In this document: in pieces, positions 18,919-42,863 of the stretch
Position numbering within the stretch: the first letter of the stretch is position 1
How the letters are laid out: every line of letters starts with the position of its first letter
Assembly (NCBI RefSeq): GCF_000247695.1
Contig: NW_004624781.1
Coordinates: forward strand, 10,158,943-10,222,942
Source: Heterocephalus glaber
Taxonomy: Eukaryota; Chordata; Mammalia; Rodentia; Bathyergidae
Length of the DNA stretch: 64,000 bases
Direction of reading: 5' to 3'
Notes under the pieces: generated by a model
The model's input: only the letters and a program-made list of their open reading frames with translations
Database searches by the model: none
What the model was told of the DNA's origin: nothing
Program-made: the position numbers and the translations under genes

Positions 18919-21302
18919 GAGACTCCTCTAGTTAGGAAAGGTTGTAATTCTACCAACAGCAAAGCTTTTGTGCTCTTTTAGCAATTCTTTGGCAGCTTTC
19001 CCTTTCCCCTAGGAATACTTATCTTCCCTATATATCTTAATCTGATAAAAAAAATTTGTATTTTTTATCCTGGGAGTCAGCCCTATGAAGTCATAGCCTC
19101 AGCTTTCTAAAGCAACGACTAACAGCTGGTTCTCCACATGGAGGACCAGGGAAGGATTGCTGCAAACCCTTAGACTCGACCCAGAGCTCAGTCTTAGCAC
19201 TGTACTTCCATGTCCTAAACTGCTTGATTCTCTGCATGCCCCTCAGCTGGTTTGAGGGGGAAGAACCCTCACACATACACATAACTTCCACCGTCTTCGG
19301 GGCAAGGATGGACTCCGTACACCAGCAGCTCTCTAAAGAGGTCTCTAGCTCTCCAAGTTCCTTCTAGATTTCCAAATGATAAGAGGTTTCCAGCGCTCTT
19401 CTTTGAAAACAAAGCTATCCCTTTGCCCCATCGTCATTATAAATAACTTGTGCAATCATTTTTCTCAAGCAAGTAGGAAGACAAAACTAAATCAAGTTGT
19501 ACTGGGAGATAAAGCAAAAGTAGTAAACTTACCAGGCCTGCTTTGGTCCCTAAATAAATGAAACCTTAAACTCCAGTAAGTCTAGATTCCGACCTCTATG
19601 ATCCCATTCTTTCTTAATGGAATGGGGAATGCCATTCACGTCTTACCAATTCTAACAAAAACTTTACCCTGACTTTTACCATGCGGATATCTGATTATGA
19701 TGTTTGAGGACATGATAATCATGTGAAAAAACATCACCGCTTTTCCATAATAACTTGCATAATAACTCCTAACAACATAATAACTCCTATAACATAATAA
19801 CTCCTAATATTGAGGGCTCTTTCTCTTTAAATGTCTATCATGAATTTATTTTGTGTGTAAGCCAGTCCTTCTGCGATCTGACTCTCTGAACTAGTTGAGA
19901 GTACACCTCTCTTTTTTTCCTGAATACTTTTGTCTTTGAATCTTTTTCAAATCTTCAGAGTTGGTCTAGTATTTACATTGGAATATGGGCAGTGATGGAA
20001 ACCTATTGTTTTGGAATCTCATCCAAAACTCAGATCAAAATCATTCTTTTGGGTCATCCTGCCAAAAAGCCAGGTGCAGAATTGGGATTCAAAGCTGGGA
20101 AATTTGAAGCAAGCACAATTTCTACCATGCTTTGTTTCCCCTGGGTATCCTAAATTTAAATGCCTGAGTTTCACTTATCATTTTAATTGCATTCAGACTT
20201 TCATTTCTCCTGGTGTGACAGACAGCACTGTCACTAAGGCCCCCATTTTCCCTAGGTGACACTGGGGAAAGAGGTTGGTTGTGAGAATCAGTTGTCCTAG
20301 TGACTCTAAAATCCTAGCATATGAGCTGCCATGACATAAATTTAATTCTAGAAAGAAAAAAAAGTCACTATGAATCTTATTGTATGGGTAAGTTTTAGCT
20401 CTGTGGTAACTAAGAGATCATCCAATCATGTCACATCCCACCTAGGTTCCAGACTCTGTAATTCCTTCTCTTTCCAATACTGGAATCACTTGGTTCCTAC
20501 ACACAGGACTCCCTGTGCACAGTGACTTCCAACACAGATGGAAGTAGGTGGTTTTCAGCCAGTTTCATTCCTGCATTCTGGGAACTGAGAACTCGACACT
20601 GATACTATCCTATCACTCCAGCATGCCCTGTTCTTATCACTGAACCTTAACTTTGGACCACTACGCTGCTTTTTTAGAAAATTACCCAGAACCCCTTTAT
20701 CTTCAAAGTATTCTAACCCAGAACCTTAGGAGAGATTTTTCTCATCTTTTTAAAATTTGAGCCCACAACTGTGCCTGGGCTCCATTTACTGATCATGAGC
20801 GTCATCACTTCTCCACTGCCATCATTTGCCTGAGCTATGACAGGTGAACAGCACAGCTGCTCACTCAGTGAGGCCTCCTTCAAATGGGCACTGGGAACTT
20901 CCCATAGGCCAGGCCCTGCTAGATACTGAGATCTGGCAAGAAGCCTTTTGTTACAGGTCCTTATTGCAAATATTTCCTAGTCTTTTGTTGCTGCTACAAC
21001 CTCAATGAGGGGATAAGATAGGTCCCAATACAAAGGGCCATTTAAAGGGATTATGAAAAATTGGTATCTGTTCTCCCCATCCCAGTTTCTCTTCCTATTT
21101 AATTGCTTCACTGAACATCAACATTTGCTCTTACAACTGTGGGCTGGAGGAAGCAAGGCATGTTTAGGATATGCACAGTAAAAGGGGGCCAGATAAAAAC
21201 ACCCCCTGAAGCTTAGTGAATTGGGCAGACTACTGAGTTCATCTGTTCCAGCCAGGTGCTCTCACACCACTGCCTTCTAGCATAAATCATCAGCTCAGCC
21301 AC
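18919..21302. other. non-coding; no gene recognised
   Basis: The short ORFs have no motifs. 19735-19805 contains three imperfect tandem copies of a phrase built on CATAATAACTCCTA. Otherwise nothing was identified. Confidence 0.4.
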
Positions 21303-21329
21303 TTTTTTTTTTTTTTTTTTTTTTTTTTT
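21303..21329. repeat. poly-T run (27 T)
   Basis: This homopolymer marks where the second contig begins after the gap, where it is 30 T long. Such runs are common break points for assemblers. Confidence 0.95.
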
Positions 21330-21529
21330 AGTTTAAGCCATTCCCCTGCTCACTCCAAGACATCTGTGGAACTACCCCTCTCAGTACTGGCTTCACACCT
21401 TATCTTTTTTTGGGCCACCTGTTGCCCCTAATGGATCCCACTGTGCTCCCACATCCTACTTCGCCTGCTGGGGAGTCAGGAGCGTGAGTGATCCTAGTAT
21501 TCTGAGGCAGGTGACTGAAGTGGCACTGA

Positions 21530-22340
21530 AGTATTCAGACGCTCCTTGTTTAATAACCGAGTTCCATTCCTGAAACTAGATTATTAAATGAATTGATCCT
21601 TAAATGAGGAATTATACATAGTATGTACAATATTCAGAACAGAGAAATGGTGATCGACAGATTTTATAAGACCATGCTCCAAATCACTCCCTTCCGCATC
21701 AAAACGGGCAAATCATATATTTTTTGCATATTGAAGTAAAAAAAGCAACCTCATATAAGGTTGCCTCAATACCCAAAAAATGTCAGATAGCTTATATTCC
21801 TCAGTAAGAGACATTATAGAAATAACACACATTTTTGAAGACATTTGCCTTTTCATGAATGCTGTTTATTTGCACAACATGCTTAGTGAGTGTACTTAAA
21901 ACACAATAGGCTACAGGCACTTCTTGTTTGAGGATTGAGTTCAGTTCTTATGGCTAGGTCAAGCAAAATGGTTGCTAAATGAGAAATTGTATATACGAGG
22001 TACATTACAATATTCAGAACAAAGAAATGGTTAAAGGAAACTCCAACTTGATGACTTTTATTTGCGTAACTCTTACACGCAATACTGTTATGTGTAACAA
22101 CATAAAGCTACAGTACTTTACTGTACAGTAAAATCAGCAAAAATTACAGTGTTGTATAAACGAGGTAAAAGACATTGAGGCTTTATCGATAAGATGTACA
22201 GAACTGTACAAAAAAGACAGTTCAAAAGTCTGAGCGGCAGGTGAACAGTCGTTAACCTGGTAAGCCATTAAATGCGGAATTTGTTCTGACGTCCCCCATA
22301 TTCACTTGTATTTGTTCTCATTCATTTGTATTGTCCTCAT
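21530..22340. mobile_element. Tigger-like DNA element(s), tandem ends
   Basis: Two diverged direct copies of one terminal segment are present. The first is near 21539-21655 (CCTTGTTTAATAACCGAGTTCC ... ACAATATTCAGAACAGAGAAATGG). The second is near 21918-22035 (CTTGTTTGAGGATTGAGTTCAG ... ACAATATTCAGAACAAAGAAATGG). Downstream TAAAGCTACAGTACTTTACTGTACAG and AGTCGTTAACCTGGTAAGCC fit a pogo/Tigger-type non-autonomous element. The family is not assigned with certainty. Confidence 0.6.
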
Positions 22341-22510
22341 GTCCCTCATACTCATTATTAAAATGAACAAAAGATATATTTAGGATCGATGGCACGCTAG
22401 GAACTGTACAAAGAATTCCCAGAGCAACTCGCAGCCAGCAGACTCACATATAAAAATTATCATTGAGGGTGATAAAGGGCTGTCAAGTTCATTCATAAAA
22501 TTCACTGATG

Positions 22511-22620
22511 GGATGCGGTATTGCTCAGTGGTACAGTGTGTGCTTAGCTTATGAAGGAGCCTAGGTTCAATGCCAGCACCAAAGAAAGAAAAAGAAAAAA
22601 GAAAAAAAGTACAGGGGTGA
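22511..22620 (+). mobile_element. older ID-like SINE with GA-rich tail
   Basis: GATGCGGTATTGCTCAGTGGTACAG, GTTCAATGCCAGCACC, then an AAAG/AAAAAG tail. It ends in AGCACC rather than GGTACC, so it is a different and older subfamily from the other ID copies. Confidence 0.75.
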
Positions 22621-22667
22621 TTTTAAGGTGATCCCCATCCCCAGGTGGGACGACGGGTGGTGTCAGG

Positions 22668-22965
22668 CACTATGTTAGGTGCTTTGCCTCCTTCAAAATC
22701 AGCTTCGTAAAGTAGAACCTACTTCTCAGTCGTGTGTGGCCATGCGTGGGCGTGTTCGCACAGACGCATGCGCACGCACAGACGCACGCACATGACGCAT
22801 GCACATGCGCTCTTTGACTCCCGTGTTCAAAACCGTGGAAACTAATGCTGAGAGCGAGCCACCTGCCGGGATTTAGTCAGAAGCTTAGAATTCAAAGCCT
22901 GACTGCCTCCTGGTCTTGGATAAGCCGCCCAGCCTCTCAGAGCCTGGGTTTTAGAGGGTGGAGAG
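22668..22965. mobile_element. MIR-like fragments around a CpG-rich simple repeat
   Basis: 22668-22735 resembles antisense MIR (GTCAGGCACTATGTTAGGTGC). 22885-22965 resembles sense MIR (CAAAGCCTGACTGCCTCCTGG ... CAGCCTCTCAGAGCC). Between them 22770-22812 is a CGCACAGACGCA-type degenerate repeat with dense CpG. Confidence 0.5.
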
Positions 22966-24451
22966 GGGAGCTTACGGGAAGCCGAGTCTGTGGAGACTGC
23001 AGCCACGATTACTTGTGACCGTGTCTCCTCCATCCCAGGTTCGGATGTTTATTTAGAGAAGGTCTGGGGCTCGCTCCCCAGGCCAACCTCCTAGATGCCT
23101 GCGGCTCTGAAGCGTCCGAATGCCCTGCTGCGCCCTCATCTTCTCCTCCCACTCTCACATCTGGGTGGCACCCCCCGGGCCCTGCTGCCCTGGGTGCAGG
23201 GGATGCCAGGTGTTGCTGGGAAACAGGAGGCAATGAAGGAGAAAGGGCAGCGGGCTGGGAAAAATAGGAAGTTGATGCAGCTGGATGATGATGGGGACTT
23301 TTTTTTTTTCCTTTTTCGGCTGGGAGATAAGGGTGTTTTTGTTAGTTTAAGGGGGGCAGGAACTCACATCAGTTATCTGCCCAGACCTTGTTTATGGATA
23401 GCTTCAGACTTTGAGACCTGGCAAGTGCTGGCACTAGGCAAAACTGAAGTGTTTTTAGCACAGAGGAAAATCCCCAAAGTCTCTTGATTATCGTTGCAGT
23501 GCTCAAGTCTACAGAGGGAACAAACACCCAGGCTTGGCCCTACTCACTCCGGAGGTCGCAAGCATGCTACAGAGGTACTGCCACTTCTGTTTGGTTTCTG
23601 CTAAGACAACACCGGGACCAGGACACTGTCAGGGTGGAAGTGTGTCCTTCTCTGGTCTGGGGTGAACTACTGCATTAGCTAGTCAGGAATAGCAAAGGGC
23701 TTCCAAAAGCTCCAAGGCCTGGAGGGTGGATAGCCAGATACAGACTCTGCACAGCCCTTGCAACTAGCTTTCTGGTTCAGCGTTAAGACCCGGTTAAGAT
23801 CTACCCGGTGTGACCTACGACCCGCTTCACATCAGCACCTCTGCCACATGCCCTTTACTTTTTGTCATTCTCTGATGTTGCAGGTGCCTTTTTATACCTC
23901 CATACCTTTGCCTCGGCCTGCAGACCCTCCTCCCTCAGCTGTGCCTGTTGACATTTTCGTTTGATGTGGTCTTTTTCTGAACTCTTTGCAGAATGGCTCT
24001 GCTGCTGCCTCTTGGCAGTGGAGAAGTCATTGTGCTGCAGGTTACTAGGACACATTGTTCATAGCAGGAGATTAAAACTGTCATCCTCTGTAAGTCCTCT
24101 GTTAGTGCTCATTTTAAGATTATAGGGGACCATGACTATAATATAAGTGGGGAGGAAGGAAGAAAAAGGTTGTCTGGGTGGTGAAAGCACAGGGAAAGGA
24201 ATCATTGGAGGAGAGGAGTGGTGGGAGTCAGGATCAGGCTGAGTGAGCTTCTGTAAGCCCTGAGAACAACCATGGTTCCCATGACCATGGAGCAGGGGTG
24301 TCCATGGGAGAGAGGGAAGGCCATCAATAAGGGGCTGGCTAAGAGTGGCTAGCAGTTGAGAATATAGTATCCCATGGGACTTGGCAAATGTGGGACCGAT
24401 TTAAGCCATGGTTGGTATCCCAGGGGCTTCAGAGTCTTAAGATTGCTAAAG
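22966..24451. other. non-coding; no gene recognised
   Basis: A 130-codon ORF at 23095-23487 is low in complexity (poly-F from a T-run) and has no known domain. Nothing else was identified. Confidence 0.4.
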
Positions 24452-24774
24452 CAGAGTTTGGCAAACTCCAGCCCACATACTAAATCTGACTGGCTTCCTA
24501 TGCATGTAAGGCATGGCCTGCAATCTAAGAGTGGTTTTACACTTTTAAATAGTAGGAAAATTCAAAAGGCTTCATAATATGTGAAAATTGTATGAGATCC
24601 AAATTTCAGGGACCCTAAGTAGATTGAATATAGCCACACTTGTCTTTTCCATGGGTCTGTGGCTGCCTCACACTTCAGTAGCAGAGTTGAGTAGCTGGGA
24701 TACAGGCTGTTGGCTGTAGAGGCCTAAACTATTTACTCTCTGTCCCTTGGTGGAAAAAGTTGACTGACCTCTGC
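24452..24774. mobile_element. hAT/Charlie-type non-autonomous DNA element
   Basis: The left end is CAGAGTTTGGCAAACTCCAGCCC. The right end, read in reverse, begins CAGAGGTCAGTCAACTTTTTC, giving a diverged terminal inverted repeat of the mammalian 'caggggttggcaaact' class. Interior phrases AGCAGAGTTGAGTAG and CTAAACTATTTACTCTCTG are typical of that class. The exact MER/Charlie family name is not assigned. Confidence 0.75.
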
Positions 24775-25440
24775 AGTAAAGTCTGGGAACTGAGCTATGA
24801 CTTTACACTGCAGTTCTCTGAGCCGTACAACAATTCTAGATTGTCGTTGTTTTGGTATTCTTATTTAGCACAAGTACAGCTTTGTAAACTTCTTATCTTT
24901 TCCATTCTGGGATGGGAGAACGTGATCAATCAGCCACCACCAGTGATCCTGCACGTCAACCCACCCCGATTTCCACTCCAGCTTCTGCTGCCCATTTTAG
25001 TAACTGCATACCTTGGCTTTCTCAGGATTCCCCAGTCTCCCCTGCAAATCTAGTGGGATTCCTGGAGGAGGAGCCCAAGGAGTGGGGATCCTCCACCTGT
25101 GGCCCCAAGGGCTTTCTGTTCTCACAGCAGCCCAATTTGTTGAAATTTTCCAGTTGAATCTTCTCACTGGTTTATAATGGCATTTGACAGCATACATTCA
25201 GGTAGCATATAAATTCAAGTTTAGGTCTTGTTTTTCCCGTAGGTGCTGCCTCTGTCCATCTTTGGACCTAGTTGTTTGCCCTACATTTTAATTCTCCGAT
25301 GGGTCAAGAAAAGTCATTAATTTCCAGCATACTGTCTTTTCCCTGTTAGGGGAAGAACATGTGTTTTCTGGCTTTCTATGCACAATTTGGACACTGAAGA
25401 CTGAAACAGTTTATGCCCTACACAGTTTTCTTTCTTTCTC
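24775..25440. other. non-coding; no gene recognised
   Basis: ORFs of 60-97 codons on both strands have no known motif. Confidence 0.4.
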
Positions 25441-25629
25441 AGGCACTGGGGATTAAACCCAGGGCTGTTCCACTGAGCTACATTCCCAGCCCTTTTTATT
25501 TATATTTTATTTTGAGACAGGGTCTCACTAAGTTGCTAAGTTGCCCAGGCTAGGCTCAAACTTATGATCCTTCTGCTTCAGCCTCCCAGAGTGCTGGGAT
25601 TACAGGCATGTGCTACCACTCCCTCCTGG
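25441..25629 (-). mobile_element. B1/ID composite SINE (B1-dID type), antisense
   Basis: An ID-related half (CACTGGGGATTAAACCCAGG ... ACTGAGCTACATTCCCAGCCC) joins directly to an antisense B1 monomer (TTGAGACAGGGTCTCAC ... GCCTCCCAGAGTGCTGGG ... GGCATGTGCTACC). Confidence 0.9.
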
Positions 25630-25852
25630 CACTATTCCATTGTTTTTGTTAGTATAACTTTATTATTCCAGGAGACTCTTGCTCTGGAAAAATATAACTT
25701 GATTGCTAGTTATAGGAACTTACTGAAAAATCCAGCAACTCTTCAGTAAAATCATCAACTGTTAAGGCCTTAATACATTGAGTCCCTCACTTCAAAATCC
25801 TCACCTTGTGGTTTCCAATAATAATGGCTTCCTTTGCCATAATCCTTCCCTA

Positions 25853-25934
25853 GTTTTTTTTTGTACCAGGGATCGAACTCGGGACCTTGCACTTTGAGGG
25901 AGGTGACGGAATCACTGAGCTAAATCCCCGGCCC
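25853..25934 (-). mobile_element. ID SINE, antisense
   Basis: T-run, GTACCAGGGATCGAACTCGG, CACTGAGCTAAATCCCCGGCCC. TCCTTCCC at 25843-25850 and 25935-25942 is the target-site duplication. Confidence 0.94.
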
Positions 25935-26128
25935 TCCTTCCCCAATTTTAATCAAGCTCACCCTTTCCTCTGCTTTACAAGACCTACCTCAGTATGACCT
26001 CCTAACTCTCAGTAAAATCCTACCTTGTTTTACTGCTTGAAGTCACCATGAAAGCTCTGTGGAAGTAGTGTTCTCTCGTATCCATGTAAGCAATAAGCTT
26101 GGCTTTGTCCTATCAACAGGAGTCTGTG

Positions 26129-26225
26129 GGCCAGGGATGTAGCTCAGTGGTGCCACTGCTTGCCTCACAAGCGCAGGCAAGGTCCTGGGTTCCATGCCCA
26201 GTACCAAAACCAAACCAAAACAAAA
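26129..26225 (+). mobile_element. ID SINE
   Basis: GGCCAGGGATGTAGCTCAGTGGTGCC, GCCTCACAAGCGCAGG, CCAGTACC, then an (AACC/AAAC)-type tail. Confidence 0.93.
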
Positions 26226-26534
26226 ACCCCCCAGGAGATTGTATTGTTTGGAAAGCTAGTATTTGACCCAATTTTAAGTCTTTGCATCTTATTATCATGA
26301 TTATGTTTTATCTCTTTCCTGTTTTTCTATAGGATTATTTGCCTCTGTGTTTTCAAAAATATTTTGTATATTAAGGGTATCATTTCTTGTGATACGTTAC
26401 TAATATTTATTCTAATTTGTCTTTTGTGGATTTTTTTATTGTAATTTTATTTTACATAGGCAGATTTATCAGCTTCTTACTGTGTCTGAGTGTTGCTCTA
26501 TGGGAAAATTCTCCCCAGTCACAGTTTATAAGTG

Positions 26535-26894
26535 TGTCTTAGTCACCTTCTTAGTTGCTGGTACAAAATACTGGTCACCTGCAATTTAAAGGAGAGGTTT
26601 ATTTTGGCTTAGGTTTTAGGGTTTCAGTACTTGCATGGTCAGCCGTATGGGGGAAGGGCCTGGGTGGAGGAAAGCTGCTCACAGCATGGTGGACAGGAAG
26701 CAGAGAGTGAAGAGAGGATGAGAGCAGGGAGAGACACCCTTCCAGGTCATGCTTGCAGTGGCTCCCCTGCCCTGCCTAGACCCTACCTCCTAATAGCAAA
26801 TCCGCTGTAGTGCTTCCACGGTGCAATCCTCTTCCAAAAGCCCTGCCTGTGAGCTCATGAAGCTTTGTGGGGACAACTAGATATAAACCACAGC
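26535..26894 (+). mobile_element. interspersed repeat, 'TTAGTCACCTTCTTAGTTGCTG' class
   Basis: Starts GTGTCTTAGTCACCTTC and runs through GGTTTATTTTGGCTTAGG, GGAGGAAAGCTGCTCACAGC, GTGGACAGGAAGCAGAGAG and CTACCTCCTAATAGC, ending near GATATAAACCACAGC. This order is a common dispersed rodent/mammal repeat that I recognise but cannot name safely. A short piece of the same repeat lies at 45152-45198. Confidence 0.6.
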
Positions 26895-28167
26895 GCAGAG
26901 GAATCCACGATGCTTTCTTCAAATGCTTGTGGTCGTGTGAATTGATCTGTTATCTGCATTGAATGTATCTTGATACATAATGAGAATAAAAGATTTGCTA
27001 ATTTTATCTTTTTTCATATGGCTGTTGAATTGAGTTATCCCCAGTACTGGGATATTCTAAAGTCTAGTTTGTCCTTAACTGATTTTACATGTCCTTATGC
27101 TGATTCACAAAAAATAGCCAATAAGAAAAAAACAAGCCAACTCTAAAGTTGACTTGGGAGATGAAATGTGTGGACTAATTCCCCCTCCAAAATATTTTTG
27201 CCAAAAAAGGAACACTAAAGGGATGCTTACCTTATAAACCACTTAAAAAAATAAAAGTGAAAACAACTCTGGGTAGTAGTTGAAACTGAGGCTCATGACA
27301 AAGATGATACTTAAATCTCTGAGAGGTAAGATAGAAAATATTTCTAAATTTTATTAAGACAACTGGCTAGCATTTTAGAAAGAGAATTTTTGACTTGTTT
27401 GTATACATACGTGATGATATAGTCAGAGGAAAATTGAGACCTTCCCTTTGGGCCCAGGGACTTACTAGCTTAATACTTCATGTAAGTAGACTCCTTTCGG
27501 AGGATCACCAGAATGAATTAGAAAGATACTAAACCTAAAGGAATGCACAATTTTATTGTGATCAATCATGTTGATGTAAGAGTAAACAGTAAACATGATT
27601 GATTGACTAGGATGCAGTAGAGAAGCAAACTTAGCTCTGCACAAATGAAGTGCTTAACTTAGCAGTGCTCTGCTGTCCAGCTGTGCTGAGTGACCAGCGG
27701 AGTGCTGCAGTGCCGGGAACTCCTGGTGCACATATTCTCTGCCCCTGGCCTGGAAGCAGCTGCTCCCTCTGTTCCAGCAGTCTGTCCAGCTGGAAGTCAG
27801 CTGATGGGTGTAAGTGTGCAGTACCTTCTGGCTTCCCCACCCCCAGGCCCAGCTCTCTAGGCCAACCATAGCTGAAGGCAGCCATAAAGAAGGCTGGCTT
27901 TTGTCTGTTTAAAAACGTTGATGTAGATGTGTGTGTTCTTTGTCATTAGGTCTAACCCAATGTACACAAATGCCAGATGTGTTGCAGTGCAACTACAGGA
28001 ACTGCAGGATCCGAGAAAACCTTGAAAGGAGTGAATGGGAGGAGGGAAAGGACTGGCAGTCACTAGAGGAAGATTTGAGGGAAGAGGAGCTTTTTTATTT
28101 TTATTTTTTCTTGGCTTTGTTTCTGAAGATGAGAGTGATTTGAGGCAATTATACTGAGGGAAAGGAA
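26895..28167. other. non-coding; no gene recognised
   Basis: A+T-rich. Short overlapping ORFs at 27631-27885 on both strands have no known motif. A local inverted pair, GATCAATCATG / CATGATTGATTG, flanks 27560-27606. Confidence 0.4.
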
Positions 28168-28275
28168 ACTAGAGCCACACACCTGTAACCCAGAACTCTG
28201 GGAGGGTGAGGCAGGAGGATCACAAATTGAAGCCAACAATCTAGGTGACTTAACAACTTAGTTAGGCCCTGGCTC

Positions 28276-28312
<37 letters not shown>

Positions 28313-28352
28313 TTCATAATAATAATAATTTAATCCCCCATACTGCAAAAAA
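28168..28352 (+). mobile_element. B1/ID composite SINE with internal (AAT)n
   Basis: B1-like start (GAGCCACACACCTGTAACCC ... GGGTGAGGCAGGAGGATCAC), then CTCAATAATAATAAT... and a short ID-like end, TTAATCCCCCATACTGC, with an A-run. The (AAT)n expansion sits at the B1/ID junction, at 28276-28330. Confidence 0.85.
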
Positions 28353-29454
28353 GAAGTTTAAGACAGAGGAGAAAATTCTTTCTATAATCTCATCAATAAC
28401 AACTTCAATTATCGCTCAAGGTACTAATTCCAGACTTTTCCTGCAAGACCCATATTATAACTACCTACAGGACTTTAGCCTCATCTGTGGTGTCTTAAAG
28501 GAGTCTTGATTAGTGTACTTAATAAATAATTTGAATTATTTTAAACCCATACCACCTAATAGCAGGGAACAAGTTATAAAGGATGAAGTCCAGAGTCTGG
28601 ATAACATAAGGATTAGTCTCCAATAGATAGGAATGAGTGAGGAGTAAGAGTAAGTCATGATACAAGAGAATTAGTGTTCAAAATGCAGCAAGAAGAAGCA
28701 TCTTTTTCTACAAATTTTATGCACACCCTGCCCTTTTGGGCATTAGTACAAATGTCCTTTTCTGACTGGAGGTGGGAGGTACTTCTGGTTTTAGTAAAAG
28801 GAAGCCAGGTCTCATGCTCCACCTATTGGTTGACTGAACTTGGGGGAACTGCCCCTACAGAGCCACTTCTGAAAACTTACCAAGCTGAACTCTGTGAATT
28901 AAAGTGGCTCTTCTACTTTGAGCCTGAAAGAGTTGCCCACAGGTTTGGCTTGCTCTTATTTACTGGTAGAGCTGTAATGTACAATGAGTTGGCTTGGCCT
29001 AAAGGACTGGGAAGAGAGTAGACAAACTAGAGAGGTGCTGTGTGTTAGAGGGTGTGGAGCAGAGAGAGGGCTGAGGATGGTGTGTGATGGGAGAAGTTAT
29101 TGACCAACTATCTGCAGGAGTGACCTGGTAGCATCAAGGTCTCACCTGACATTAATAACTTACTTTCCTGTTTCTTGTAACTACAATAACTTTATTAATT
29201 CAGTAGTACTACTGAAAAGTGATTATCTAAGTTTTCCCAGGGATGTGTGCATTTCAAACAGCTTGCTTTAATATCACTGATTCAGGAACAGTCAACATTT
29301 GTACTGTCACCCTTTGTTATTTGAGGCTACAAATCATTGGATATCAGAGTAAAATGCAAGCAGTTTCCTGTCACCTCACCATGCTTATTTTTTCTTAGCC
29401 TTTGGTTGAGAAAGCAAAGAGCACTGGCTCTCCTCAGAGCGATCTTGAGGACGG
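28353..29454. other. non-coding; one 115-codon ORF of no known family
   Basis: The ORF at 28674-29021 has no recognisable domain, no CpG-rich promoter and no splice context. Treated as chance. Confidence 0.4.
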
Positions 29455-29690
29455 CTTCTAGAAAGAGACTGGCAGGGTGTGAATCTTAGCTCCAATATTT
29501 AAGCTCTGCGATCCTCAAGTCATTCACTCTCTTTCTGCCTCATTCCCGTCAACCTGTATCATGTGCATGATGACAGCACTGGCGCTCTGTACTGTGAGGA
29601 TGAAATGAGACAATCCATGCAACAATCCCTTGCCCAGGGTCCAGGATCTAGTCAACACTGTGTGCATTAGAGCTTGAAAGGAACTCCTGA
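29455..29690 (+). mobile_element. MIR SINE
   Basis: GGTGTGAATCTTAGCTCC, CTGCGATCCTCAAGTCATTCAC, CTGTGAGGATGAAATGAGAC and CCCTTGCCCAGGGTCC, in MIR order. Confidence 0.75.
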
Positions 29691-30935
29691 GAGCATTTAT
29701 AGCAGAGTGGCAAACCTCTGGCTTTGTTTCACATCACTCTTTCCCATCAGCACCAGGCCTGAAATAAGACTAGTCTCACAAAGTAATGTTTGCCACAGTC
29801 ACATTTTCAGGAGCAGATGATTTTGTGTATTTGCCTGAGGGACAAATAGACTTCCTGGTCTCAGGCTATCATCCTGCGTTTGTAGGGTCAGTGTCAGGAG
29901 TTTAGTGTGAGTCTGGGTGAAATGCATATGGCCCAAACCTGTTTGAAAACACTGCGGAACCAGACCACTGACGTTATAGCCTTTATGTTTAATTTGCTTA
30001 CCCTTATTCTCTTGGTGTTAAATATGCTCTGGCTATTGTTCTCTGTTTAGGTAAGGGAGGAAGATAAAGAGCCTCTATCCTGAGAAACCCTGGATTATGA
30101 AAAATCCACAGTGGCTATAGACCAACTGTCCAGATGCCCTTGGGCAACTGGTGGCCATTGAAACCCAGGGCCATGTAGCTCACCCAACCTGTTACAACTG
30201 AAGTTGATAGACCAATTTAAAAAAGTATTTTTCCATTCCCTTTGACAGGCACAAGGGGACATATGTTCATTTAGAGGCCAAGAGAATCAATGTTGCCCTG
30301 AGCTCCATGTGGAATGAAAGGCTCTGCCGCAGTGTAGGCCATGAGAAAATGTCACTGACCTGGATTCTCTGCTGAACCAACACCATTAAGAGCTACTGAC
30401 CCAGTTTCCACATGACCTTCACTTTCCCTTTTTGAATTTGGATTACCTAGGTTACCACAGGTACTAAGAGACAGGGGTTCTGTTATTCAAAAGACTTGGT
30501 GTGATTTGCTCTAACACTCTGTTAGGAACAGTTGAGATTTAGGACTGAGCCTGAGATGCTCTTGGATAGTATGGCACATAGACCAAATTCTTTATTTTGA
30601 GGAAATTTGGCTAAAACAAATGTCATTTTTACCCCGTGTTACCTTTTAGTCCCTGGTGGTGGCCCCTGAGGCCGTTGTGGGGGTGGGGCAAGGTGAGCGC
30701 TTAGGGTAGATTGGTAGAAATGGTGCATGCTGGGTACAGTATGGGTTGGTGGGGAGTGGACTGAGGTGCAAGGCACCCTGGGTAGGATGACAGTGTAGAG
30801 CCCCTTTAAAGAATGGCTGTTTATTTAAGGAATAGCCTGTCAGTGTTGGTTTGTTTGGGAGAGCAGTGAGGCACATGTGTCACCACTCAGAACCTCTGCT
30901 CCCTGGTCTGGACAGTTCAGCTGTACATCCAAATA
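29691..30935. other. non-coding; no gene recognised
   Basis: No recognisable coding or repeat content. Confidence 0.4.
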
Positions 30936-31107
30936 CAGTCGTGTGTCTCTTAACAAAGGGGACATATTCTGAGAAACGTGTCACTGGGCAATTTCTTCAT
31001 TGTGCAGCATCATACTTAACTAAGTCAGCTACTGTGTCAACCCTGTGTATGATCTGGGGGGCCACTGCTGTGTGTGTGGCTCATCATTGACCATAATGTT
31101 GCTCAGC
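30936..31107. mobile_element. Tigger-type element, short internally deleted copy
   Basis: CAGTCGTGTGTCTCTTAAC is preceded by TA and followed by GACATATTCTGAGAAACGTGTCACTGGGCAATTTCTTCATTGTGC. The right end is diverged (ATCATTGACCATAATGTTGC). Same family as the element at 17144-18386, but in the opposite order. Confidence 0.65.
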
Positions 31108-31251
31108 CCCTCAGCAGAGCCCAACTCACCTGTATTACAGAGCACCCCTCTTGGGGTTTACCCTCGTGGCAAGCAGCTGATACAGTCCTGAAAGGAGTTG
31201 CCATAACTGGGGTCTTTCCCACATCATGGCATTTTTAGGGGCTTCAGGTGG

Positions 31252-31351
31252 NNNNNNNNNNNNNNNNNNNNNNNNNNNNNNNNNNNNNNNNNNNNNNNNN
31301 NNNNNNNNNNNNNNNNNNNNNNNNNNNNNNNNNNNNNNNNNNNNNNNNNNN
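31252..31351. other. assembly gap, exactly 100 N
   Basis: A run of exactly 100 N, the usual placeholder for a gap of unknown length. It separates the two copies of the 10-kb block. Confidence 0.99.
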
Positions 31352-31383
<32 letters not shown>

Positions 31384-31581
31384 TTTAAGCCATTCCCCTG
31401 CTCACTCCAAGACATCTGTGGAACTACCCCTCTCAGTACTGGCTTCACACCTTATCTTTTTTTGGGCCACCTGTTGCCCCTAATGGATCCCACTGTGCTC
31501 CCACATCCTACTTCGCCTGCTGGGGAGTCAGGAGCGTGAGTGATCCTAGTATTCTGAGGCAGGTGACTGAAGTGGCACTGA

Positions 31582-32392
31582 AGTATTCAGACGCTCCTTG
31601 TTTAATAACCGAGTTCCATTCCTGAAACTAGATTATTAAATGAATTGATCCTTAAATGAGGAATTATACATAGTATGTACAATATTCAGAACAGAGAAAT
31701 GGTGATCGACAGATTTTATAAGACCATGCTCCAAATCACTCCCTTCCGCATCAAAACGGGCAAATCATATATTTTTTGCATATTGAAGTAAAAAAAGCAA
31801 CCTCATATAAGGTTGCCTCAATACCCAAAAAATGTCAGATAGCTTATATTCCTCAGTAAGAGACATTATAGAAATAACACACATTTTTGAAGACATTTGC
31901 CTTTTCATGAATGCTGTTTATTTGCACAACATGCTTAGTGAGTGTACTTAAAACACAATAGGCTACAGGCACTTCTTGTTTGAGGATTGAGTTCAGTTCT
32001 TATGGCTAGGTCAAGCAAAATGGTTGCTAAATGAGAAATTGTATATACGAGGTACATTACAATATTCAGAACAAAGAAATGGTTAAAGGAAACTCCAACT
32101 TGATGACTTTTATTTGCGTAACTCTTACACGCAATACTGTTATGTGTAACAACATAAAGCTACAGTACTTTACTGTACAGTAAAATCAGCAAAAATTACA
32201 GTGTTGTATAAACGAGGTAAAAGACATTGAGGCTTTATCGATAAGATGTACAGAACTGTACAAAAAAGACAGTTCAAAAGTCTGAGCGGCAGGTGAACAG
32301 TCGTTAACCTGGTAAGCCATTAAATGCGGAATTTGTTCTGACGTCCCCCATATTCACTTGTATTTGTTCTCATTCATTTGTATTGTCCTCAT
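31582..32392. mobile_element. Tigger-like DNA element(s), second copy
   Basis: Identical to 21530-22340. Confidence 0.6.
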
Positions 32393-32562
32393 GTCCCTCA
32401 TACTCATTATTAAAATGAACAAAAGATATATTTAGGATCGATGGCACGCTAGGAACTGTACAAAGAATTCCCAGAGCAACTCGCAGCCAGCAGACTCACA
32501 TATAAAAATTATCATTGAGGGTGATAAAGGGCTGTCAAGTTCATTCATAAAATTCACTGATG

Positions 32563-32672
32563 GGATGCGGTATTGCTCAGTGGTACAGTGTGTGCTTAGC
32601 TTATGAAGGAGCCTAGGTTCAATGCCAGCACCAAAGAAAGAAAAAGAAAAAAGAAAAAAAGTACAGGGGTGA
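32563..32672 (+). mobile_element. older ID-like SINE, second copy
   Basis: Identical to 22511-22620. Confidence 0.75.
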
Positions 32673-34503
32673 TTTTAAGGTGATCCCCATCCCCAGGTGG
32701 GACGACGGGTGGTGTCAGGCACTATGTTAGGTGCTTTGCCTCCTTCAAAATCAGCTTCGTAAAGTAGAACCTACTTCTCAGTCGTGTGTGGCCATGCGTG
32801 GGCGTGTTCGCACAGACGCATGCGCACGCACAGACGCACGCACATGACGCATGCACATGCGCTCTTTGACTCCCGTGTTCAAAACCGTGGAAACTAATGC
32901 TGAGAGCGAGCCACCTGCCGGGATTTAGTCAGAAGCTTAGAATTCAAAGCCTGACTGCCTCCTGGTCTTGGATAAGCCGCCCAGCCTCTCAGAGCCTGGG
33001 TTTTAGAGGGTGGAGAGGGGAGCTTACGGGAAGCCGAGTCTGTGGAGACTGCAGCCACGATTACTTGTGACCGTGTCTCCTCCATCCCAGGTTCGGATGT
33101 TTATTTAGAGAAGGTCTGGGGCTCGCTCCCCAGGCCAACCTCCTAGATGCCTGCGGCTCTGAAGCGTCCGAATGCCCTGCTGCGCCCTCATCTTCTCCTC
33201 CCACTCTCACATCTGGGTGGCACCCCCCGGGCCCTGCTGCCCTGGGTGCAGGGGATGCCAGGTGTTGCTGGGAAACAGGAGGCAATGAAGGAGAAAGGGC
33301 AGCGGGCTGGGAAAAATAGGAAGTTGATGCAGCTGGATGATGATGGGGACTTTTTTTTTTTCCTTTTTCGGCTGGGAGATAAGGGTGTTTTTGTTAGTTT
33401 AAGGGGGGCAGGAACTCACATCAGTTATCTGCCCAGACCTTGTTTATGGATAGCTTCAGACTTTGAGACCTGGCAAGTGCTGGCACTAGGCAAAACTGAA
33501 GTGTTTTTAGCACAGAGGAAAATCCCCAAAGTCTCTTGATTATCGTTGCAGTGCTCAAGTCTACAGAGGGAACAAACACCCAGGCTTGGCCCTACTCACT
33601 CCGGAGGTCGCAAGCATGCTACAGAGGTACTGCCACTTCTGTTTGGTTTCTGCTAAGACAACACCGGGACCAGGACACTGTCAGGGTGGAAGTGTGTCCT
33701 TCTCTGGTCTGGGGTGAACTACTGCATTAGCTAGTCAGGAATAGCAAAGGGCTTCCAAAAGCTCCAAGGCCTGGAGGGTGGATAGCCAGATACAGACTCT
33801 GCACAGCCCTTGCAACTAGCTTTCTGGTTCAGCGTTAAGACCCGGTTAAGATCTACCCGGTGTGACCTACGACCCGCTTCACATCAGCACCTCTGCCACA
33901 TGCCCTTTACTTTTTGTCATTCTCTGATGTTGCAGGTGCCTTTTTATACCTCCATACCTTTGCCTCGGCCTGCAGACCCTCCTCCCTCAGCTGTGCCTGT
34001 TGACATTTTCGTTTGATGTGGTCTTTTTCTGAACTCTTTGCAGAATGGCTCTGCTGCTGCCTCTTGGCAGTGGAGAAGTCATTGTGCTGCAGGTTACTAG
34101 GACACATTGTTCATAGCAGGAGATTAAAACTGTCATCCTCTGTAAGTCCTCTGTTAGTGCTCATTTTAAGATTATAGGGGACCATGACTATAATATAAGT
34201 GGGGAGGAAGGAAGAAAAAGGTTGTCTGGGTGGTGAAAGCACAGGGAAAGGAATCATTGGAGGAGAGGAGTGGTGGGAGTCAGGATCAGGCTGAGTGAGC
34301 TTCTGTAAGCCCTGAGAACAACCATGGTTCCCATGACCATGGAGCAGGGGTGTCCATGGGAGAGAGGGAAGGCCATCAATAAGGGGCTGGCTAAGAGTGG
34401 CTAGCAGTTGAGAATATAGTATCCCATGGGACTTGGCAAATGTGGGACCGATTTAAGCCATGGTTGGTATCCCAGGGGCTTCAGAGTCTTAAGATTGCTA
34501 AAG

Positions 34504-34826
34504 CAGAGTTTGGCAAACTCCAGCCCACATACTAAATCTGACTGGCTTCCTATGCATGTAAGGCATGGCCTGCAATCTAAGAGTGGTTTTACACTTTTAA
34601 ATAGTAGGAAAATTCAAAAGGCTTCATAATATGTGAAAATTGTATGAGATCCAAATTTCAGGGACCCTAAGTAGATTGAATATAGCCACACTTGTCTTTT
34701 CCATGGGTCTGTGGCTGCCTCACACTTCAGTAGCAGAGTTGAGTAGCTGGGATACAGGCTGTTGGCTGTAGAGGCCTAAACTATTTACTCTCTGTCCCTT
34801 GGTGGAAAAAGTTGACTGACCTCTGC
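34504..34826. mobile_element. hAT/Charlie-type element, second copy
   Basis: Identical to 24452-24774. Confidence 0.75.
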
Positions 34827-35492
34827 AGTAAAGTCTGGGAACTGAGCTATGACTTTACACTGCAGTTCTCTGAGCCGTACAACAATTCTAGATTGTCGTT
34901 GTTTTGGTATTCTTATTTAGCACAAGTACAGCTTTGTAAACTTCTTATCTTTTCCATTCTGGGATGGGAGAACGTGATCAATCAGCCACCACCAGTGATC
35001 CTGCACGTCAACCCACCCCGATTTCCACTCCAGCTTCTGCTGCCCATTTTAGTAACTGCATACCTTGGCTTTCTCAGGATTCCCCAGTCTCCCCTGCAAA
35101 TCTAGTGGGATTCCTGGAGGAGGAGCCCAAGGAGTGGGGATCCTCCACCTGTGGCCCCAAGGGCTTTCTGTTCTCACAGCAGCCCAATTTGTTGAAATTT
35201 TCCAGTTGAATCTTCTCACTGGTTTATAATGGCATTTGACAGCATACATTCAGGTAGCATATAAATTCAAGTTTAGGTCTTGTTTTTCCCGTAGGTGCTG
35301 CCTCTGTCCATCTTTGGACCTAGTTGTTTGCCCTACATTTTAATTCTCCGATGGGTCAAGAAAAGTCATTAATTTCCAGCATACTGTCTTTTCCCTGTTA
35401 GGGGAAGAACATGTGTTTTCTGGCTTTCTATGCACAATTTGGACACTGAAGACTGAAACAGTTTATGCCCTACACAGTTTTCTTTCTTTCTC

Positions 35493-35681
35493 AGGCACTG
35501 GGGATTAAACCCAGGGCTGTTCCACTGAGCTACATTCCCAGCCCTTTTTATTTATATTTTATTTTGAGACAGGGTCTCACTAAGTTGCTAAGTTGCCCAG
35601 GCTAGGCTCAAACTTATGATCCTTCTGCTTCAGCCTCCCAGAGTGCTGGGATTACAGGCATGTGCTACCACTCCCTCCTGG
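35493..35681 (-). mobile_element. B1/ID composite SINE, second copy
   Basis: Identical to 25441-25629. Confidence 0.9.
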
Positions 35682-35904
35682 CACTATTCCATTGTTTTTG
35701 TTAGTATAACTTTATTATTCCAGGAGACTCTTGCTCTGGAAAAATATAACTTGATTGCTAGTTATAGGAACTTACTGAAAAATCCAGCAACTCTTCAGTA
35801 AAATCATCAACTGTTAAGGCCTTAATACATTGAGTCCCTCACTTCAAAATCCTCACCTTGTGGTTTCCAATAATAATGGCTTCCTTTGCCATAATCCTTC
35901 CCTA

Positions 35905-35986
35905 GTTTTTTTTTGTACCAGGGATCGAACTCGGGACCTTGCACTTTGAGGGAGGTGACGGAATCACTGAGCTAAATCCCCGGCCC
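35905..35986 (-). mobile_element. ID SINE, second copy
   Basis: Identical to 25853-25934, including its target-site duplication. Confidence 0.94.
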
Positions 35987-36180
35987 TCCTTCCCCAATTT
36001 TAATCAAGCTCACCCTTTCCTCTGCTTTACAAGACCTACCTCAGTATGACCTCCTAACTCTCAGTAAAATCCTACCTTGTTTTACTGCTTGAAGTCACCA
36101 TGAAAGCTCTGTGGAAGTAGTGTTCTCTCGTATCCATGTAAGCAATAAGCTTGGCTTTGTCCTATCAACAGGAGTCTGTG

Positions 36181-36277
36181 GGCCAGGGATGTAGCTCAGT
36201 GGTGCCACTGCTTGCCTCACAAGCGCAGGCAAGGTCCTGGGTTCCATGCCCAGTACCAAAACCAAACCAAAACAAAA
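36181..36277 (+). mobile_element. ID SINE, second copy
   Basis: Identical to 26129-26225. Confidence 0.93.
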
Positions 36278-36586
36278 ACCCCCCAGGAGATTGTATTGTT
36301 TGGAAAGCTAGTATTTGACCCAATTTTAAGTCTTTGCATCTTATTATCATGATTATGTTTTATCTCTTTCCTGTTTTTCTATAGGATTATTTGCCTCTGT
36401 GTTTTCAAAAATATTTTGTATATTAAGGGTATCATTTCTTGTGATACGTTACTAATATTTATTCTAATTTGTCTTTTGTGGATTTTTTTATTGTAATTTT
36501 ATTTTACATAGGCAGATTTATCAGCTTCTTACTGTGTCTGAGTGTTGCTCTATGGGAAAATTCTCCCCAGTCACAGTTTATAAGTG

Positions 36587-36946
36587 TGTCTTAGTCACCT
36601 TCTTAGTTGCTGGTACAAAATACTGGTCACCTGCAATTTAAAGGAGAGGTTTATTTTGGCTTAGGTTTTAGGGTTTCAGTACTTGCATGGTCAGCCGTAT
36701 GGGGGAAGGGCCTGGGTGGAGGAAAGCTGCTCACAGCATGGTGGACAGGAAGCAGAGAGTGAAGAGAGGATGAGAGCAGGGAGAGACACCCTTCCAGGTC
36801 ATGCTTGCAGTGGCTCCCCTGCCCTGCCTAGACCCTACCTCCTAATAGCAAATCCGCTGTAGTGCTTCCACGGTGCAATCCTCTTCCAAAAGCCCTGCCT
36901 GTGAGCTCATGAAGCTTTGTGGGGACAACTAGATATAAACCACAGC
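36587..36946 (+). mobile_element. interspersed repeat, second copy
   Basis: Identical to 26535-26894. Confidence 0.6.
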
Positions 36947-38219
36947 GCAGAGGAATCCACGATGCTTTCTTCAAATGCTTGTGGTCGTGTGAATTGATCT
37001 GTTATCTGCATTGAATGTATCTTGATACATAATGAGAATAAAAGATTTGCTAATTTTATCTTTTTTCATATGGCTGTTGAATTGAGTTATCCCCAGTACT
37101 GGGATATTCTAAAGTCTAGTTTGTCCTTAACTGATTTTACATGTCCTTATGCTGATTCACAAAAAATAGCCAATAAGAAAAAAACAAGCCAACTCTAAAG
37201 TTGACTTGGGAGATGAAATGTGTGGACTAATTCCCCCTCCAAAATATTTTTGCCAAAAAAGGAACACTAAAGGGATGCTTACCTTATAAACCACTTAAAA
37301 AAATAAAAGTGAAAACAACTCTGGGTAGTAGTTGAAACTGAGGCTCATGACAAAGATGATACTTAAATCTCTGAGAGGTAAGATAGAAAATATTTCTAAA
37401 TTTTATTAAGACAACTGGCTAGCATTTTAGAAAGAGAATTTTTGACTTGTTTGTATACATACGTGATGATATAGTCAGAGGAAAATTGAGACCTTCCCTT
37501 TGGGCCCAGGGACTTACTAGCTTAATACTTCATGTAAGTAGACTCCTTTCGGAGGATCACCAGAATGAATTAGAAAGATACTAAACCTAAAGGAATGCAC
37601 AATTTTATTGTGATCAATCATGTTGATGTAAGAGTAAACAGTAAACATGATTGATTGACTAGGATGCAGTAGAGAAGCAAACTTAGCTCTGCACAAATGA
37701 AGTGCTTAACTTAGCAGTGCTCTGCTGTCCAGCTGTGCTGAGTGACCAGCGGAGTGCTGCAGTGCCGGGAACTCCTGGTGCACATATTCTCTGCCCCTGG
37801 CCTGGAAGCAGCTGCTCCCTCTGTTCCAGCAGTCTGTCCAGCTGGAAGTCAGCTGATGGGTGTAAGTGTGCAGTACCTTCTGGCTTCCCCACCCCCAGGC
37901 CCAGCTCTCTAGGCCAACCATAGCTGAAGGCAGCCATAAAGAAGGCTGGCTTTTGTCTGTTTAAAAACGTTGATGTAGATGTGTGTGTTCTTTGTCATTA
38001 GGTCTAACCCAATGTACACAAATGCCAGATGTGTTGCAGTGCAACTACAGGAACTGCAGGATCCGAGAAAACCTTGAAAGGAGTGAATGGGAGGAGGGAA
38101 AGGACTGGCAGTCACTAGAGGAAGATTTGAGGGAAGAGGAGCTTTTTTATTTTTATTTTTTCTTGGCTTTGTTTCTGAAGATGAGAGTGATTTGAGGCAA
38201 TTATACTGAGGGAAAGGAA

Positions 38220-38327
38220 ACTAGAGCCACACACCTGTAACCCAGAACTCTGGGAGGGTGAGGCAGGAGGATCACAAATTGAAGCCAACAATCTAGGTGA
38301 CTTAACAACTTAGTTAGGCCCTGGCTC

Positions 38328-38364
<37 letters not shown>

Positions 38365-38404
38365 TTCATAATAATAATAATTTAATCCCCCATACTGCAA
38401 AAAA
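38220..38404 (+). mobile_element. B1/ID composite SINE with (AAT)n, second copy
   Basis: Identical to 28168-28352, including the (AAT)n length. An unstable microsatellite of identical length in both copies argues that they are the same DNA. Confidence 0.85.
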
Positions 38405-39506
38405 GAAGTTTAAGACAGAGGAGAAAATTCTTTCTATAATCTCATCAATAACAACTTCAATTATCGCTCAAGGTACTAATTCCAGACTTTTCCTGCAAGA
38501 CCCATATTATAACTACCTACAGGACTTTAGCCTCATCTGTGGTGTCTTAAAGGAGTCTTGATTAGTGTACTTAATAAATAATTTGAATTATTTTAAACCC
38601 ATACCACCTAATAGCAGGGAACAAGTTATAAAGGATGAAGTCCAGAGTCTGGATAACATAAGGATTAGTCTCCAATAGATAGGAATGAGTGAGGAGTAAG
38701 AGTAAGTCATGATACAAGAGAATTAGTGTTCAAAATGCAGCAAGAAGAAGCATCTTTTTCTACAAATTTTATGCACACCCTGCCCTTTTGGGCATTAGTA
38801 CAAATGTCCTTTTCTGACTGGAGGTGGGAGGTACTTCTGGTTTTAGTAAAAGGAAGCCAGGTCTCATGCTCCACCTATTGGTTGACTGAACTTGGGGGAA
38901 CTGCCCCTACAGAGCCACTTCTGAAAACTTACCAAGCTGAACTCTGTGAATTAAAGTGGCTCTTCTACTTTGAGCCTGAAAGAGTTGCCCACAGGTTTGG
39001 CTTGCTCTTATTTACTGGTAGAGCTGTAATGTACAATGAGTTGGCTTGGCCTAAAGGACTGGGAAGAGAGTAGACAAACTAGAGAGGTGCTGTGTGTTAG
39101 AGGGTGTGGAGCAGAGAGAGGGCTGAGGATGGTGTGTGATGGGAGAAGTTATTGACCAACTATCTGCAGGAGTGACCTGGTAGCATCAAGGTCTCACCTG
39201 ACATTAATAACTTACTTTCCTGTTTCTTGTAACTACAATAACTTTATTAATTCAGTAGTACTACTGAAAAGTGATTATCTAAGTTTTCCCAGGGATGTGT
39301 GCATTTCAAACAGCTTGCTTTAATATCACTGATTCAGGAACAGTCAACATTTGTACTGTCACCCTTTGTTATTTGAGGCTACAAATCATTGGATATCAGA
39401 GTAAAATGCAAGCAGTTTCCTGTCACCTCACCATGCTTATTTTTTCTTAGCCTTTGGTTGAGAAAGCAAAGAGCACTGGCTCTCCTCAGAGCGATCTTGA
39501 GGACGG

Positions 39507-39742
39507 CTTCTAGAAAGAGACTGGCAGGGTGTGAATCTTAGCTCCAATATTTAAGCTCTGCGATCCTCAAGTCATTCACTCTCTTTCTGCCTCATTCCCG
39601 TCAACCTGTATCATGTGCATGATGACAGCACTGGCGCTCTGTACTGTGAGGATGAAATGAGACAATCCATGCAACAATCCCTTGCCCAGGGTCCAGGATC
39701 TAGTCAACACTGTGTGCATTAGAGCTTGAAAGGAACTCCTGA
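39507..39742 (+). mobile_element. MIR SINE, second copy
   Basis: Identical to 29455-29690. Confidence 0.75.
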
Positions 39743-40987
39743 GAGCATTTATAGCAGAGTGGCAAACCTCTGGCTTTGTTTCACATCACTCTTTCCCATC
39801 AGCACCAGGCCTGAAATAAGACTAGTCTCACAAAGTAATGTTTGCCACAGTCACATTTTCAGGAGCAGATGATTTTGTGTATTTGCCTGAGGGACAAATA
39901 GACTTCCTGGTCTCAGGCTATCATCCTGCGTTTGTAGGGTCAGTGTCAGGAGTTTAGTGTGAGTCTGGGTGAAATGCATATGGCCCAAACCTGTTTGAAA
40001 ACACTGCGGAACCAGACCACTGACGTTATAGCCTTTATGTTTAATTTGCTTACCCTTATTCTCTTGGTGTTAAATATGCTCTGGCTATTGTTCTCTGTTT
40101 AGGTAAGGGAGGAAGATAAAGAGCCTCTATCCTGAGAAACCCTGGATTATGAAAAATCCACAGTGGCTATAGACCAACTGTCCAGATGCCCTTGGGCAAC
40201 TGGTGGCCATTGAAACCCAGGGCCATGTAGCTCACCCAACCTGTTACAACTGAAGTTGATAGACCAATTTAAAAAAGTATTTTTCCATTCCCTTTGACAG
40301 GCACAAGGGGACATATGTTCATTTAGAGGCCAAGAGAATCAATGTTGCCCTGAGCTCCATGTGGAATGAAAGGCTCTGCCGCAGTGTAGGCCATGAGAAA
40401 ATGTCACTGACCTGGATTCTCTGCTGAACCAACACCATTAAGAGCTACTGACCCAGTTTCCACATGACCTTCACTTTCCCTTTTTGAATTTGGATTACCT
40501 AGGTTACCACAGGTACTAAGAGACAGGGGTTCTGTTATTCAAAAGACTTGGTGTGATTTGCTCTAACACTCTGTTAGGAACAGTTGAGATTTAGGACTGA
40601 GCCTGAGATGCTCTTGGATAGTATGGCACATAGACCAAATTCTTTATTTTGAGGAAATTTGGCTAAAACAAATGTCATTTTTACCCCGTGTTACCTTTTA
40701 GTCCCTGGTGGTGGCCCCTGAGGCCGTTGTGGGGGTGGGGCAAGGTGAGCGCTTAGGGTAGATTGGTAGAAATGGTGCATGCTGGGTACAGTATGGGTTG
40801 GTGGGGAGTGGACTGAGGTGCAAGGCACCCTGGGTAGGATGACAGTGTAGAGCCCCTTTAAAGAATGGCTGTTTATTTAAGGAATAGCCTGTCAGTGTTG
40901 GTTTGTTTGGGAGAGCAGTGAGGCACATGTGTCACCACTCAGAACCTCTGCTCCCTGGTCTGGACAGTTCAGCTGTACATCCAAATA

Positions 40988-41159
40988 CAGTCGTGTGTCT
41001 CTTAACAAAGGGGACATATTCTGAGAAACGTGTCACTGGGCAATTTCTTCATTGTGCAGCATCATACTTAACTAAGTCAGCTACTGTGTCAACCCTGTGT
41101 ATGATCTGGGGGGCCACTGCTGTGTGTGTGGCTCATCATTGACCATAATGTTGCTCAGC
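40988..41159. mobile_element. short Tigger-type element, second copy
   Basis: Identical to 30936-31107. Confidence 0.65.
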
Positions 41160-41303
41160 CCCTCAGCAGAGCCCAACTCACCTGTATTACAGAGCACCCC
41201 TCTTGGGGTTTACCCTCATGGCAAGCAGCTGATACAGTCCTGAAAGGAGTTGCCATAACTGGGGTCTTTCCCACATCATGGCATTTTTAGGGGCTTCAGG
41301 TGG

Positions 41304-42239: not shown

Positions 42240-42405
42240 TGTCAAACCTAAAGGGAGTCATATACCCTGCCTGAGCCTCAGTTTCTTCATCGGGAGGATA
42301 GCAATATTAGTAGCTCATTCCTGATAAGATTACAATGAAGATAAAATTAGTTACTGCATATGCACACTGTCTGGCACACAGTGAGGTGTCAAAAATACAG
42401 TCGTT
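42240..42405 (+). mobile_element. MIR SINE
   Basis: CCTGAGCCTCAGTTTCTTCATC, TGAAGATAAAATTAGTTACTGC and CTGTCTGGCACACAGTGAGG, in MIR order. Confidence 0.8.
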
Positions 42406-42863
42406 CTCCTTGGCTAAGAGGTTGCTTGGGGAGGTAGTACGGCCTTATTGAACAGAGACAGTGCAGTGCCAGAAAGTATTTCTTCTGAGAGCACTGGTCA
42501 TGCTCGCCAGCTCTGTTGAAGGAATCCCTATTTTGTGACCTGGGCTAATAGACCAACAGAGTTGTCATAGAGATTGTATGCAGAGGAACATGAAGCAAAG
42601 CAGAGTATGGGGGCTTCCGGAGCCCCTCTCCAGAAAGCCCAGGGTGCAGACTGTCTCCTGCCTTGTCTTCCGACATGATGAGCTGCCTCATGATGTCCTA
42701 CCTGGCTCATAAATCACATTTTCTTTCTGTAGAAATCCCAGGCTCCTTTCTGTGAGGGATGAAGCCCTTGAGACTGGTCCAAGTCCCTGCCTGCCCTCCC
42801 TTCTGCTGGTCCTTCCTTCAGTCAGCCTTTCCCCTGCCCTGGTTGTGCCCTGCAGGGATCCTC

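What the first reader, a model, noticed from the sequence alone, without database searches (positions are those of the whole stretch)
21303..41303. False 10-kb tandem duplication across a 100-N gap
21303-31251 and 31352-41303 are the same sequence at a constant offset of 10052. The left copy stops at the last base before the gap, and the right copy starts at the first base after it, inside the T-run that also opens the left copy (27 T versus 30 T). One substitution was seen (G31166/A41218), 86 bases from the gap edge. Even the (AAT)n tract has the same length in both. This is what two unmerged overlapping contigs or alleles look like. Gene or repeat counts in this window would be inflated.
Basis: partly seen in the sequence, partly recalled or inferred. 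Interest (0 to 1): 0.85.

Follow-up and report, generated by a model that had tools for sequence, protein, structure and literature searches.

The report
False duplication from overlapping contigs
A 10-kb stretch appears twice in this mammalian genome assembly, almost certainly because two overlapping pieces were placed end to end without being merged, so it is a known kind of assembly error and not biology.

Summary
21303-31251 and 31355-41303 match over 9,949 columns with one substitution (G31166/A41218) and no indel. The left copy ends on the last base before the window's only N run (31252-31351). The right copy starts on the first base after it, inside a T run (T30 versus T27); these two runs are the window's only homopolymers of 18 or more bases. 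Both inner block edges coincide with contig edges, as an overlap of contig ends must; a genuine tandem repeat would need the assembly to break exactly at its junction.

The layout fits the "homotype" false duplication, type 1, of the Vertebrate Genomes Project (passages of PMC8081667). Divergence of 0.01%, with the substitution 86 bases from the contig end, favours one haplotype over two alleles, not decisively. A real, very recent duplication is not excluded without reads, but is unlikely (about 6%).

The source is a mammal (LINE-1 ORF2), probably a rodent (SINE types, recalled). None of the seven long frames within the left copy reached a Pfam cut-off. Ordinary artefact; low interest.

The parts
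21303..31251 (+). Left copy of the block = 3' end of the left contig
   Evidence: Matches 31355-41303 over 9,949 columns, 1 mismatch, 0 indels
21303..21329 (+). T27 run that opens the left copy; the left contig runs through it into sequence on its left that is not part of the duplicated block
   Evidence: one of only two homopolymers of 18 or more bases in the window
31166..31166 (+). Only substitution, left copy (G), 86th base from the contig end
31252..31351 (.). Scaffold gap, 100 N, the only N run in the window
   Evidence: that 100 N stands for a gap of unknown length is a recalled convention
31352..31381 (+). T30 run at the very start of the right contig
31355..41303 (+). Right copy of the block = 5' end of the right contig (31352-31354 are extra T)
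   Evidence: the match ends exactly where the left contig runs out
41218..41218 (+). Only substitution, right copy (A)

Best explanation
An assembly error: two contigs that overlap by about 9.95 kb were scaffolded end to end with a 100-N gap instead of being merged. Left contig = left flank + block; right contig = block + right flank. The genome carries the block once. Most likely both contig ends come from the same haplotype (VGP 'homotype' false duplication, type 1). The right contig starts inside a long T run whose length differs between the two contigs (27 versus at least 30), which suggests that uncertainty of the homopolymer broke the overlap graph there. Shown: the identity, the edges and the gap. 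Inferred: single copy in the genome, same haplotype, and the T run as cause of the break. The confidence here is for the same-haplotype form; false duplication of either form I put at about 0.92.
For: The inner edges of the duplicated block coincide to the base with both gap edges. One substitution and no indel in 9,949 columns, outside the T run. That substitution lies 86 bases from the left contig's end; a uniform position would give this with probability 0.009 for that end, 0.017 for either end (a post hoc test on one event). For alleles, the probability of 0 or 1 difference at the five heterozygosities tried is 0.41 (0.0002), 0.041 (0.0005), 0.0005 (0.001), 5e-8 (0.002) and 6e-11 (0.0027). 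A random contig start would fall in a homopolymer of 18 or more bases with probability about 0.0006 (post hoc), so the T run is probably causal. Passages of PMC8081667 describe overlaps at contig boundaries, often one corrected read long, that scaffolding turns into tandem copies with a gap between.
Against: No reads, depth or k-mer data were available, and the whole assembly was not searched. The substitution and the T27/T30 difference show that the two copies are not one sequence used twice; they could be a real allelic or paralogous difference. Passages of PMC9516828 say heterotype cases were much commoner than homotype in the assemblies studied there.
Confidence: 0.75

Rival explanations
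1. False duplication of the allelic kind (VGP 'heterotype', or a mis-assembled duplicated overlapping contig): the left contig carries one parental haplotype of the block and the right contig the other.
For: The gap between the copies and the edge geometry fit equally well. One substitution and a homopolymer length difference are what two nearly identical alleles would show. In a nearly homozygous tract low divergence is expected: at a heterozygosity of 0.0002, 0 or 1 difference has probability 0.41. Passages of PMC9516828 say that heterotype cases were much commoner than homotype in the assemblies studied there.
Against: Heterotype duplications are described for regions where the haplotypes diverge (passages of PMC8081667 and PMC9516828); here divergence is about 0.0001. 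The equal (AAT)n tract and the end-placed substitution favour one haplotype.
Confidence: 0.17
2. A real, very recent tandem duplication of about 9.95 kb, with an assembly break exactly at the junction of the two units.
For: Sequence alone cannot exclude it. A de Bruijn assembler can break at the edge of a repeat, which would put the gap at the junction (general knowledge). The copies are not perfectly identical.
Against: The break would have to fall to the base at the junction. The two block edges (20303-22302 against 40304-42303) share no direct homology that could drive unequal crossing-over: one search gives two short inverted matches at chance level, 19 columns (E 0.041; 21413-21431 against 41287-41305, so it touches the right edge but its partner lies 110 bases inside the left edge) and 17 columns (E 0.49). 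No microhomology at the junction (base before the block C against last base of the block G; base after the block C against first base of the block T; bases printed). Passages of PMC9516828 say the separating gap was not found for the true duplications they examined.
Confidence: 0.06
3. The T run is the poly-A tail (minus strand) of a retroposed copy and the block is a retroposition product.
For: A long T run opens both copies.
Against: No exact direct repeat longer than 9 bases links the 30 bases left of the T run with the left block or with 41290-42500 (inexact repeats were not sought). Both copies carry the T run and the same SINE-like insertions in the same places, as one locus seen twice would.
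Confidence: 0.01

Closest known systems
[quoted passage not shown] passages seen)
   Same: Overlap at contig ends, turned by scaffolding into tandem copies with a gap between; near-identical; length compatible with a long or corrected read
   Different: No difference found in the layout; the depth and k-mer criteria could not be tested, and the read length of this assembly is unknown
Heterotype false duplication, flanking-contigs form (PMC8081667, PMC9516828; passages seen)
   Same: Same layout: one contig enters the block from the left, the other leaves it to the right, gap between
   Different: Expected to show haplotype divergence; here 1 substitution in 9,949 columns
Duplicated overlapping contigs, DOC (Kelley and Salzberg 2010, PMC2864568; passages seen)
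   Same: Two neighbouring contigs align at their facing ends and should be joined
   Different: Explained there by haplotype divergence and judged by mate pairs, which are not available here

Membership tests
Homotype false duplication at a contig boundary | Duplicated copies separated by an assembly gap | tested here: met
   100 N at 31252-31351, the only N run
Homotype false duplication at a contig boundary | Duplicate lies at the facing ends of the two contigs | tested here: met
   Block ends at 31251 and restarts at 31352, to the base
Homotype false duplication at a contig boundary | Length about that of a read | tested here: inconclusive
   9,949 bases is in the long-read range, but the sequencing method of this assembly is unknown
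Homotype false duplication at a contig boundary | No haplotype-specific k-mers, or one copy below haploid read depth | not testable with these tools
   No reads available
Heterotype false duplication | Haplotype-level sequence divergence between the copies | tested here: inconclusive
   1 substitution in 9,949 columns plus T27/T30; fits alleles only in a nearly homozygous tract
Heterotype false duplication | Half depth on each copy, with single-copy k-mers in both | not testable with these tools
   No reads available
True tandem duplication | Contiguous sequence across the unit-unit junction | tested here: inconclusive
   The place where a junction would be is a gap; reads were not available to look for it
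True tandem duplication | Homology or microhomology at the breakpoints (common, not obligatory) | tested here: not met
   No direct homology between the edges and no shared bases at the junction

The most novel reading that the evidence does not exclude
A real tandem duplication of about 10 kb, so young that only one base differs, perhaps polymorphic in the species, with its junction lost in the gap.
Probability: 0.06. Interest if true: 0.2.

Novelty: already known. Interest (0 to 1): 0.06.

Why it matters
Only as a quality flag. Features in the block are counted twice; copy-number, segmental-duplication or repeat statistics from this assembly should mask one copy. It is a clean example, with a probable trigger (a long T run of disputed length) visible at the contig start.

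Tried and rejected
Retroposition (T run as poly-A tail): no flanking exact direct repeat longer than 9 bases found. Unequal crossing-over between repeats at the block edges: no direct homology there; two short inverted matches at chance level, one of which touches the right edge. Coding content of the block: the 7 stop-to-stop frames of 100 aa or more that lie wholly within the left copy (an eighth, 31181-31483, runs into the gap and was not scanned) were scanned with 3 frames from outside the block. One block frame had a sub-threshold hit (Terminase_6, 15.5 bits against a cut-off of 27); the other 9 of 10 had none. This negative is weak: the LINE-1 ORF2 fragment among the ten also had no Pfam match, and shorter exons were not tested. 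tRNA genes: 0 (bacterial code). Rfam families: 0 at gathering score.

Naming the species: LINE-1 ORF2 shows a mammal. The tRNA-derived and B1-like repeats look like rodent ID and B1 SINEs by recall. Two paper searches (listings), passages of a beaver/kangaroo-rat retroposon paper (PMC5335264) and of a pocket-mouse assembly paper (PMC9348616) did not settle the species, so none is claimed. Three of the five heterozygosities tried (0.0002, 0.002, 0.0027) are figures that appear in PMC9348616.

Literature on the error: searches (listings) led to the three papers of which I saw passages. One search returned only two of those three. One search found 32 papers, of which 8 were listed and none opened.

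Copy number of the block in the whole assembly: never obtained, because the genome search did not complete. Its holdings are described as prokaryote genomes, so this assembly may not be held at all.

Full report
Observation. The window has one N run, 100 N at 31252-31351. At a constant offset of 10052, 21303-31251 equals 31355-41303 with one mismatch in 9,949 columns, G31166 against A41218, and no indel. The right contig opens with T30 at 31352; the left copy opens with T27 at 21303. Among 39 non-self pairs over 60 columns in a self-BLAST (15 printed) the block is the only long one; the next is 114 columns at 78%. The (AAT)n tract is 54 bases in both copies.

Geometry. The left copy ends at the last base before the gap, and the right copy begins at the first base after it. 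In two contigs whose ends overlap this is so by construction: the left contig holds left flank plus overlap, the right contig holds overlap plus right flank. In a true tandem duplication it requires that the assembly broke exactly at the junction. There is no sign of a duplication mechanism either. The stretches 1 kb either side of the two outer edges (20303-22302 against 40304-42303) share no direct homology; the comparison gave two short inverted matches at chance level, 19 columns (E 0.041; 21413-21431 against 41287-41305, touching the right edge, its partner 110 bases inside the left edge) and 17 columns (E 0.49). The bases that would meet at the junction share no microhomology (bases printed: the block is preceded by C and ends in G; it starts with T and is followed by C).

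Same haplotype or alleles. One substitution in 9,949 bases is 0.01%. For alleles, 0 or 1 difference has probability 0.41 at a heterozygosity of 0.0002, 0.041 at 0.0005, 0.0005 at 0.001, 5e-8 at 0.002 and 6e-11 at 0.0027; the true heterozygosity here is unknown. The substitution is the 86th base from the left contig's end; a uniform position gives 0.009 for that end or 0.017 for either end. This is a post hoc test on a single event, so it is weak; that consensus tends to be poorer at contig ends is general knowledge. The T27/T30 difference does not discriminate between alleles and homopolymer error. Against my reading, passages of PMC9516828 say heterotype cases were much commoner than homotype in the assemblies studied there. 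I favour the same haplotype, about 0.75 against 0.17.

Why the break there. The right contig starts inside one of the two copies of the only homopolymer of 18 or more bases in the window. A random start would do so with probability about 0.0006 (post hoc). The likely sequence of events, inferred, is that reads disagreed on the T-run length, the overlap across it was not accepted in one path of the assembly graph, and that path was emitted as a separate contig that still shared about one read length with its neighbour. Scaffolding then ordered the two contigs correctly and placed 100 N between them without testing for overlap. That 100 N marks a gap of unknown length is a convention that I recall.

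Known kinds. [quoted passage not shown] Passages of PMC2864568 describe the same layout as duplicated overlapping contigs. I saw only the passages returned, not the whole papers. Two layout criteria are met (gap between, facing contig ends), the length criterion is inconclusive because the read type is unknown, and the depth and k-mer criteria could not be tested.

Content. The source is a mammal: the frame 54081-54569 (+) matches LINE-1 ORF2 at E 1.4e-68. tRNA-derived and B1-like short repeats look like rodent SINEs by recall. The seven frames of 100 aa or more wholly within the left copy have no Pfam match at its cut-off; this is a weak negative, since the LINE-1 fragment scanned alongside had none either and shorter exons were not tested. 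Of the 53 stop-to-stop frames of 100 aa or more in the window, 7 are second copies from the right block and 1 (31181-31483) is a false frame through the N gap, so even a simple frame count is inflated.

Limits. The whole assembly and the reads were out of reach: the genome search was busy six times. The verdict rests on the geometry, the near-identity and the literature description. I put a false duplication of either kind at about 0.92 and a real, very young tandem duplication at about 0.06.

Noticed in passing
9538-9620 and 11225-11307: An 83-base direct repeat, 95% identical, with sharp ends and 1,604 bases between the copies; no further similarity between 8500-10800 and 10900-13000 at E 0.001. 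Unexplained.
   Followed up: partly
54081-54569 (+): Open fragment of a LINE-1 ORF2 C-terminal part (E 1.4e-68 to solved LINE-1 ORF2 chains). The same search also matched a chain named Cilia- and flagella-associated protein 61 (9d2f_J, E 1.7e-11) over query residues 15-86, which may mean LINE-derived sequence in that deposited chain.
   Followed up: no
154-531: Two neighbouring minisatellite-like arrays, 154-308 (periods 47 and 43) and 370-531 (period 70).
   Followed up: no
31181-31483: Stop-to-stop frame through the N gap that a naive gene caller could report as a protein.
   Followed up: yes
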